Source: Ilyobacter polytropus DSM 2926 (GTDB taxonomy: Bacteria; Fusobacteriota; Fusobacteriia; Fusobacteriales; Fusobacteriaceae). Taken from it: a stretch of 64,000 nt of DNA. Positions 1 through 2,034 of this stretch are shown here, piece after piece (positions within the stretch are counted from its first letter, which is position 1; every line of letters starts with the position of its first letter). Position numbers and translations under genes: made by a program. Below the pieces are notes generated by a model. That model was not told the DNA's origin. It searched no databases and saw only the letters and a program-made list of their open reading frames with translations. Location of the stretch: positions 620,001 to 684,000 of the forward strand of contig NC_014633.1 in the NCBI RefSeq assembly GCF_000165505.1, given 5' to 3'.

Positions 1-2034
1 GTTGTGAAGTCAGGAGAAAAAATCCTTGTTCCTAGAAATGTTCACAAATCTGTAACTGCAGCTATAATCCTAAGTGGTGCAGAACCTATATATATGAATC
101 CTGAGATTGATGATGACTTAGGTATTGCACACGGTGTAAAACCAGAAACAGTTGAAAAAATGCTAAAACAACATTCTGATATAAAAGCGGTCCTTATAAT
201 AAATCCTACATACTACGGTGTAGCAACTGACATCAAGAGAATTGCTGACATCGCACACAGCTATGATATACCACTAGTTGTTGATGAGGCTCATGGTCCA
301 CATCTTCATTTTCACGAAGATCTGCCCATATCTGCGGTAGATGCAGGAGCGGATATCTGTGCACAGAGTACACATAAAATAATTGGTGCTCTCACCCAAA
401 TGTCTCTATTGCATGTAAATTCAGACAGGGTTGATCAAAACAGAGTACAACAGATACTGAGTTTACTGCACACAACTTCTCCTTCATATATATTGATGGC
501 ATCTCTTGACTGCGCCAGAAGACAGATTGCAACTGAGGGAAGAGAACTTCTCACCAAGAGTATTTCCCTTGCACATAAACTCAGAAGTGAAATCAACAAA
601 ATACCAGGAGTATCATCTTTTGGAATAGAGATAGTTGGAAGAGAGGGTATCTATGCCTTTGATCCTACAAAGTTAACAATAACAGCCAGAGACCTTGGTT
701 TAACAGGTTTTCAGCTAGAAACTCTACTTGTAAACGAATACAATATACAAGTTGAACTGTCTGATTACTATAATGTTTTAGCTATAATAACCCTAGGTGA
801 TTCTGAAGAAAGTATCGGGAAACTTAGTGATGCATTGAGAGATATAAGTGAACGATTCTTTGGTAAAGAGGAAATTCACAGAAAATCCCTAAAAATGCCT
901 GCTATTCCTGAACCTGTACTTATACCAAGAGAGGCTTTTAACAGTGTAAAGAACAAAATTCTTTTTGCTGAAAGTGAGGGAAAAATCTGCGGTGAGCTTA
1001 TAATGGCGTATCCTCCTGGAATACCTATTATCTGTCCCGGTGAAAGAATAACCTCAGACATTATAGAGCATATAAAAGAACTCAAAGACGCCGAACTTCA
1101 CATTCAGGGAATGGATGATCACGAACTTCAATACATTAATGTAATTGAGGAAGAAGATGCAGTATATATCTATACAGAAAAAATGAAAAACCAATTATTT
1201 GGTGTGCCTATGAACCTAGGGGCCAACAAAACAGGAATTGAATTTGGATTGGAAGCTCTCTGGGACAACTATCCAGATGTTTTTGATGAAATGGAAGTTA
1301 TCGAAATCGAGAGACAAAAGGAAGATTTTTCTGTTCAAAATCTTCGATATAAAAACACTATTCTTGATACTTGTGAAAGAGTTGCCCATACAGTAAATTT
1401 AGCAGTAAAAGATGGTTACAGGCCTATTACAATAGGAGGAGATCATTCTATAGCCATAGGAACTATAGCAGGAGTAGCCAAAGAAAAAAATATAGGGGTC
1501 ATTTGGATGGATGCCCACGGTGATATGAACACTCAAGAAAGCACACTTACTGGAAATATTCACGGTATGCCTCTTGCACTTTTACAGGGACTAGGGGACA
1601 AGGATCTATGCAACTGTTTTTATGACGGACCTAAAATAAAAAGTGAAAATATTGTACTATTTGGTGTAAGGGACCTTGATGAGCAAGAGAGAGAGATCAT
1701 AAATAAAAGTGGAGTAAAAGTTGTATTTTATGATGAGATAGCTCAAAGGGGAATAGATGTAGTTTTAGACGAAGTCAGAGAATACTTAGATGTAGACAAC
1801 CTACATATAAGTTTTGATATCGATGTTCTCAATCCTGAGTACGCCCCAGGTGTCAGCCTTCCTGTCAGAGGTGGTTTTGCCCCTGATGATATATTCCACA
1901 GTTTCAAATATTTATTTAAAAATTATACCATTACATCTGTGGATATTGTAGAATTCAATCCAATCTATGACAAAAACAGTAAAACAATGGAATTTGTAAA
2001 AGAGCTTACTGAGTATGTTAAGAATCCTGATTAA
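1..2034 (+). CDS. Orn/Lys/Arg decarboxylase-arginase fusion protein (5' end outside window)
   Basis: A single uninterrupted frame enters from beyond the window start, so the N-terminus is missing. The first ~295 residues are the PLP fold of group III Orn/Lys/Arg decarboxylases (SpeA/YaaO type): DEAHGPH, then the SxHK motif with the Schiff-base lysine at nt 376-378. Residues ~300-385 match the decarboxylase C-terminal domain. From about residue 395 a complete ureohydrolase follows, with Mn-binding motifs GGDHS (nt 1435-1449), DAHGD (1510-1524) and DID (1816-1824). The GNIHGMPLA segment is typical of arginase rather than agmatinase. Inferred role: arginine to ornithine plus urea, then decarboxylation to putrescine. 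If the decarboxylase prefers arginine the route would be agmatine to putrescine instead. A bidirectional terminator follows. Domain calls are firm; substrate order is inference. Confidence 0.9.
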   Translation, partial: VVKSGEKILVPRNVHKSVTAAIILSGAEPIYMNPEIDDDLGIAHGVKPETVEKMLKQHSDIKAVLIINPTYYGVATDIKRIADIAHSYDIPLVVDEAHGPHLHFHEDLPISAVDAGADICAQSTHKIIGALTQMSLLHVNSDRVDQNRVQQILSLLHTTSPSYILMASLDCARRQIATEGRELLTKSISLAHKLRSEINKIPGVSSFGIEIVGREGIYAFDPTKLTITARDLGLTGFQLETLLVNEYNIQVELSDYYNVLAIITLGDSEESIGKLSDALRDISERFFGKEEIHRKSLKMPAIPEPVLIPREAFNSVKNKILFAESEGKICGELIMAYPPGIPIICPGERITSDIIEHIKELKDAELHIQGMDDHELQYINVIEEEDAVYIYTEKMKNQLFGVPMNLGANKTGIEFGLEALWDNYPDVFDEMEVIEIERQKEDFSVQNLRYKNTILDTCERVAHTVNLAVKDGYRPITIGGDHSIAIGTIAGVAKEKNIGVIWMDAHGDMNTQESTLTGNIHGMPLALLQGLGDKDLCNCFYDGPKIKSENIVLFGVRDLDEQEREIINKSGVKVVFYDEIAQRGIDVVLDEVREYLDVDNLHISFDIDVLNPEYAPGVSLPVRGGFAPDDIFHSFKYLFKNYTITSVDIVEFNPIYDKNSKTMEFVKELTEYVKNPD

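What the first reader, a model, noticed from the sequence alone, without database searches (positions are those of the whole stretch)
1..2034. Decarboxylase and arginase joined in one polypeptide
The frame runs without interruption from a PLP Orn/Lys/Arg decarboxylase (SxHK lysine and C-terminal domain) into a full arginase-type ureohydrolase with all Mn ligands. The two activities are consecutive steps from arginine to putrescine plus urea, so the fusion could channel ornithine or agmatine. I know of no characterised enzyme with this order. The arginase-type GNIHGMPLA segment suggests arginine to ornithine to putrescine, which would need an ornithine-preferring decarboxylase.
Basis: partly seen in the sequence, partly recalled or inferred. 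Interest (0 to 1): 0.75.

Follow-up and report, generated by a model that had tools for sequence, protein, structure and literature searches.

The report
Fused ornithine decarboxylase–arginase of Fusobacteriaceae
This gene really does encode one protein with two consecutive enzymes for turning arginine into putrescine, but the same fused enzyme is already described from related bacteria; what is worth keeping is that here the arginase half looks intact, whereas in the oral species studied so far it is dead.

Summary
Window 1-2034 is the last 677 codons of a 781-codon gene (G000:C2:619689-622034) whose Shine-Dalgarno and ATG lie 312 nt upstream of the window. It joins an ancestral-form (no REC domain) Orn/Lys/Arg decarboxylase to an arginase-type ureohydrolase with all six Mn ligands. 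The claim that no such enzyme is characterised is wrong: it is ODA, ornithine decarboxylase/arginase, described in F. nucleatum (Li 2021; Mothersole 2022) and essential there (2025). In F. nucleatum the arginase half is dead (Ser609, Asn713); the equivalents here (D608, D712) are intact. The fusion is in 50 of 61 Fusobacteriaceae genomes, 0 of 37 other Fusobacteriota, and no inspected match in 398 Bacillota. Both domain trees point to one fusion. 46 of 51 copies keep every ligand; loss occurred at least three times. Stand-alone ODCs of F. necrophorum-like genomes nest inside, sister to the dead-arginase clade: a secondary domain loss. Best reading: arginine -> ornithine + urea, then putrescine + CO2, by this genome's only detected OKR decarboxylase and only ureohydrolase. 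Channelling is untested. Low to modest interest.

The parts
1..2034 (+). 3' 677 codons of the 781-codon ODC/arginase (ODA) gene; the gene begins 312 nt upstream of the window (G000:C2:619689)
1..810 (+). Orn/Lys/Arg decarboxylase major domain (residues 105-374 of 9-374 lie in the window)
   Evidence: PF01276, E 6.8e-97
367..378 (+). STHK motif; K230 is the predicted PLP-binding lysine
   Evidence: sequence; conserved in all fusions extracted
901..1116 (+). Orn/Lys/Arg decarboxylase C-terminal domain (residues 405-476)
   Evidence: PF03711, E 2e-9
1117..1194 (+). junction between the two enzymes (residues 477-502), no stop or frameshift
   Evidence: present in the congeners
1195..2007 (+). arginase-family ureohydrolase domain (residues 503-773)
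   Evidence: PF00491, E 3.5e-61; closest solved chain 8d27_A, E 1.3e-123
1435..1449 (+). GGDHS; H586 is the predicted first Mn ligand
   Evidence: alignment to solved arginases; survey
1510..1524 (+). DAHGD; D608, H610, D612 are predicted Mn ligands (D608 corresponds to Ser609 of F. nucleatum ODA)
1552..1566 (+). GNIHG; H625 equivalent to the arginase general acid/base histidine
   Evidence: position assigned from alignment
1816..1824 (+). DID; D710 and D712 are predicted Mn ligands (D712 corresponds to Asn713 of F. nucleatum ODA)
1951..1953 (+). E755, equivalent to the guanidinium-binding glutamate
   Evidence: position assigned from alignment

Best explanation
It is the Ilyobacter polytropus copy of ODA, the Fusobacteriaceae ornithine decarboxylase/arginase. 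Proposed mechanism: the C-terminal Mn-dependent arginase domain hydrolyses L-arginine to L-ornithine and urea, and the N-terminal PLP decarboxylase domain converts ornithine to putrescine and CO2, which feeds spermidine synthesis. Shown: architecture, intact catalytic residues, purifying selection on both halves, being the only OKR decarboxylase and only ureohydrolase detected in the genome, presence of a spermidine synthase homologue. Inferred: both activities, substrate preference, flux direction. Not shown and not needed: substrate channelling.
For: Domain content and order. The F. nucleatum fusion has ODC activity and complements ODC-deficient yeast (PMC8503589); its ODC domain alone provides the essential function there (PMC12826042). 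All Mn ligands kept here, arginase rather than agmatinase profile. dN/dS of the arginase half is like that of the ODC half in Ilyobacter (0.019-0.032 against 0.023-0.048), whereas in two of three pairs with the dead arginase it is 2-2.6 times the ODC half. Only one PF01276 match, one PF00491 match, no arginine deiminase match, spermidine synthase homologue present, argininosuccinate synthase present. Both domain trees give the fusions as one group apart from a few derived split copies.
Against: No activity was measured on this protein. The rocF arginase equivalog cut-off is not reached (206.6 against 227.6 bits). The position equivalent to arginase Thr246 is Leu here, Thr in most relatives, which could lower activity. 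A genome with argininosuccinate synthase may make ornithine by biosynthesis and not need the arginase.
Confidence: 0.83

Rival explanations
1. Only the decarboxylase half works: the arginase domain is a retained scaffold, as in F. nucleatum, and the enzyme makes putrescine from ornithine supplied by biosynthesis or uptake.
For: F. nucleatum ODA works this way (PMC12826042); the domain is kept there without activity; Leu at the Thr246 position and a score below the rocF cut-off.
Against: All ligands and the equivalents of H141 and E277 are intact; the arginase half is under selection as strong as the ODC half in this genus.
Confidence: 0.12
2. Reverse order: the decarboxylase acts on arginine to give agmatine, and the second domain is an agmatinase.
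For: Ancestral-form decarboxylases of Psychrilyobacter are arginine-specific and lie beside agmatinase homologues (PMC8503589).
Against: The ureohydrolase scores far better as arginase than agmatinase. The ODC half groups with the F. nucleatum-like and F. necrophorum-like enzymes, away from stand-alone decarboxylases that sit beside agmatinase-like genes.
Confidence: 0.04
3. True channelling (an addition to the main reading, not an alternative to it): ornithine passes from arginase site to decarboxylase site without mixing with bulk.
For: Consecutive steps in one chain; the two stayed together in 50 of 61 family genomes.
Against: The halves can function or survive apart: the ODC domain alone suffices in F. 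nucleatum, G013 keeps the arginase half alone, G038/G039 the ODC half alone. No structural or kinetic evidence.
Confidence: 0.1
4. The fusion is an assembly or sequencing artefact.
For: None found.
Against: Same gene in two congeners and same architecture in 50 genomes.
Confidence: 0.005

Closest known systems
ODA, ornithine decarboxylase/arginase of Fusobacterium nucleatum (WP_005898385, 783 aa; PMC8503589; Mothersole et al. 2022; PMC12826042)
   Same: Same domain order, length within 2 residues, ancestral-form ODC without REC domain, residue numbering offset by one.
   Different: F. nucleatum has Ser609 and Asn713 at two Mn-ligand positions and no arginase activity; here both are Asp (D608, D712).
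Fusobacterium necrophorum stand-alone ancestral ODC (WP_005954404, 490 aa; PMC8503589)
   Same: Homologous ODC; equivalent stand-alone ODCs in G038/G039 are 71% identical and nest inside the fusion clade.
   Different: No arginase domain.
Arginase chain 8d27_A
   Same: Closest solved chain, E 1.3e-123 over 284 residues; carries the S and N substitutions reported for F. nucleatum ODA.
   Different: Two ligands substituted; the chain is an isolated domain of 287 residues.
Bacterial arginases (e.g. 6nfp, 6dkt, 1cev)
   Same: Same family and all Mn ligands.
   Different: Stand-alone enzymes; this domain falls below the NCBIfam rocF cut-off.

Membership tests
Fusobacteriaceae ODA (ornithine decarboxylase/arginase) | Ancestral-form OKR decarboxylase at the N-terminus, without REC domain | tested here: met
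   PF01276 begins at residue 9 and no REC domain is reported
Fusobacteriaceae ODA (ornithine decarboxylase/arginase) | Arginase-family domain fused at the C-terminus in one frame | tested here: met
   PF00491 at 503-773, single frame
Fusobacteriaceae ODA (ornithine decarboxylase/arginase) | Shares ancestry with the other fusions in both domains | tested here: met
   Domain trees
Fusobacteriaceae ODA (ornithine decarboxylase/arginase) | Ornithine-preferring decarboxylase activity | not testable with these tools
   Only relatives are assayed (PMC8503589)
Active binuclear-Mn arginase | All six Mn ligands (His, DxHxD, DxD) | tested here: met
Active binuclear-Mn arginase | NCBIfam rocF_arginase (TIGR01229) curated cut-off | tested here: not met
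   206.6 bits against 227.6; it is still the best-scoring ureohydrolase model
Active binuclear-Mn arginase | Urea and ornithine released from arginine | not testable with these tools
   needs an assay
Agmatinase (TIGR01230) | Curated cut-off 174.3 bits | tested here: not met
   90.5 bits

The most novel reading that the evidence does not exclude
ODA arose once in Fusobacteriaceae as a working two-step enzyme and has since come apart repeatedly: Mn ligands were lost at least three times (the F. nucleatum-like clade, G044, G050), not only in one clade; the sister of the F. nucleatum-like clade dropped the arginase domain entirely, so the 'ancestral' stand-alone ODC of the F. necrophorum-like group is a derived, stripped ODA; and in G013 only the arginase half remains.
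Probability: 0.75. Interest if true: 0.35.

Novelty: already known. Interest (0 to 1): 0.22.

Why it matters
The type of enzyme is known, but the published work I could read centres on F. nucleatum, whose arginase half is dead. Ilyobacter polytropus offers a copy with every catalytic residue and selection on both halves, which makes it a good laboratory subject for asking what the fusion was originally for and whether it channels ornithine. The family-wide record of ligand loss, domain loss and half-gene survival is a tidy natural series of a fusion enzyme decaying.

Tried and rejected
Artefact of assembly: rejected (congeners and family). ADC-agmatinase order: rejected on profile scores and tree. 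Search for the same fusion outside Fusobacteriaceae: none in the 37 other Fusobacteriota genomes; in 398 sampled Bacillota genomes most listed arginase matches have open frames near 300 aa, and the two longest (680 and 617 aa) were inspected and show no decarboxylase, only high-GC frame extension; the list was cut at weak matches, so this is not exhaustive. The genome-contig scan with the single protein found only close patterns and does not test the wider distribution well. Mothersole et al. 2022 is not held, so what it says about species with intact ligands could not be read. I did not run a structure prediction: a solved chain of a close relative already gives the fold, and a truncated monomer could not answer the channelling question.

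Full report
Observation. Window 1-2034 is open on the + strand with no stop. The window is G000:C2:620001-684000 of a 3,132,314-base genome in three contigs, the size and replicon number published for Ilyobacter polytropus CuHbu1T (PMC3035301); the identification rests on that match. The full gene is 781 codons, L002:7690-10035, starting 312 nt before the window behind AAGGAGGAGAT. Pfam finds OKR_DC_1 9-374, OKR_DC_1_C 405-476 and Arginase 503-773. The best solved relative of the C-terminal half is arginase chain 8d27_A (E 1.3e-123), then bacterial arginases 6nfp, 6dkt, 6nbk, 1cev. For the N-terminal half the best is the Orn/Lys/Arg decarboxylase family protein 2x3l.

Known kind. Li et al. 2021 (PMC8503589) report that F. 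[quoted passage not shown] They judged the arginase domain unlikely to be active because two Mn-binding aspartates are Ser and Asn. A 2025 study (PMC12826042) names the gene oda, cites Mothersole et al. 2022 (Biochemistry 61:1378) for loss of arginase function through Ser609 and Asn713, and shows that oda is essential and that its ODC domain alone restores growth. Mothersole et al. could not be read here.

This copy. Counting codons, Ser609 and Asn713 correspond to D608 and D712 here, an offset of one. H586, D608, H610, D612, D710 and D712 are all present, as are the equivalents of the catalytic His (H625) and guanidinium-binding Glu (E755) (the roles of these positions are from established arginase knowledge, the assignments from alignment). 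The domain scores best as arginase (TIGR01229, 206.6 bits, cut-off 227.6) rather than agmatinase (90.5). Between I. polytropus and its two congeners dN/dS is 0.023-0.048 for the ODC half and 0.019-0.032 for the arginase half. In the three pairs of the clade with S and N at the ligand positions (L038, L039, L042), the arginase half stands at 0.133, 0.101 and 0.037 against 0.051, 0.046 and 0.036 for the ODC half: higher in two of three. This fits a working arginase here and relaxed constraint there; it is not proof.

Genome setting. In G000 the fusion is the only PF01276 match and the only PF00491 match. There is no PF02274 arginine deiminase match; one good spermidine synthase match and one weak one; and one PF02784 match (444 aa), which I take to be diaminopimelate decarboxylase but did not test. 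Argininosuccinate synthase is present, whereas the three genomes of the dead-arginase clade (G016-G018) show only weak PF00764 matches in proteins of other lengths, in line with the auxotrophy discussed by Li et al. Putrescine in this organism therefore most likely comes from this protein. Pyruvoyl-dependent decarboxylases and agmatine deiminase (PF04371) were not searched in G000.

Distribution and history. Of 98 Fusobacteriota genomes, 50 hold the fusion (51 copies, two in G053), all in the window's family of 61 genomes (counted). The ODC tree puts all fusions together, with two stand-alone ODCs (G038, G039) nested inside as sister to the dead-arginase clade (support 100/98). The arginase tree puts the fusions together with one stand-alone arginase (G013) inside (quick method). 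Six Mn ligands are complete in 46 of 51 copies; the exceptions are L038, L039, L042, L048 (G044) and L029 (G050). On the ODC tree this needs at least three changes (bootstrap range 3-3). In G013 the arginase half is alone behind its own Shine-Dalgarno, with no decarboxylase remnant upstream. G050 and G044 are draft assemblies of many contigs, so sequencing error in them cannot be fully excluded.

Mechanism and rivals. Arginine -> ornithine + urea (C-terminal half), then ornithine -> putrescine + CO2 (N-terminal half) is the best-supported scheme. The chief rival is that only the decarboxylase works, as in F. nucleatum. Channelling is possible but unsupported: the ODC half works alone in F. nucleatum, and each half survives separately in relatives.

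A by-product. One hit of the genome-contig scan, L068, is a different fusion: the same decarboxylase family joined to agmatine deiminase (TIGR03380, 440.7 bits, above its 381.8 cut-off), followed by an overlapping N-carbamoylputrescine amidase gene (TIGR03381, 407.4 bits, just under 410.25). About 59 of 196 sampled genomes of its family hold the full-length fusion. I found no description of it in the papers searched. It looks like an independent fusion of a decarboxylase with the next enzyme on an arginine-to-putrescine route.

Verdict. A correct observation of an already known enzyme type, with a modest evolutionary addition.

Noticed in passing
L068:2998-5649 (CASFQR010000004.1) and family of G098: An 883-aa ORF fuses an ancestral-form Orn/Lys/Arg decarboxylase to agmatine deiminase, followed by an overlapping N-carbamoylputrescine amidase gene; about 59 of 196 sampled small genomes of that family have the full-length fusion. 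I found no published description; probably an arginine decarboxylase-agmatine deiminase bifunctional enzyme.
   Followed up: partly
L002:5067-7217 (G000:C2, about 2.9 to 0.8 kb upstream of the window): The gene upstream of ODA on the same strand is another two-enzyme fusion: lysine 2,3-aminomutase (TIGR03820) joined to beta-lysine N-acetyltransferase (TIGR03827), 716 aa; the same neighbour lies beside ODA in congener G042.
   Followed up: partly
L043 (G013:C191): Arginase half of ODA surviving alone, about 285 aa with its own Shine-Dalgarno, ODC half gone; the genome has extended-form decarboxylases instead.
   Followed up: partly
L049 (G055:C1), L050-L054: Stand-alone arginases about 46-49% identical to the fusion's arginase domain and sister to it in the tree; G055 has two copies about 7 kb apart plus the fusion. 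Possible descendants of the pre-fusion arginase.
   Followed up: partly
L029 (G050) and L048 (G044): Two further ODA copies outside the F. nucleatum-like clade with Mn-ligand losses in the arginase domain though the frame stays open.
   Followed up: partly
L061, L062 (G018, G016): Two of the dead-arginase genomes also carry a separate, ligand-complete arginase of about 312 aa from a distant branch.
   Followed up: no
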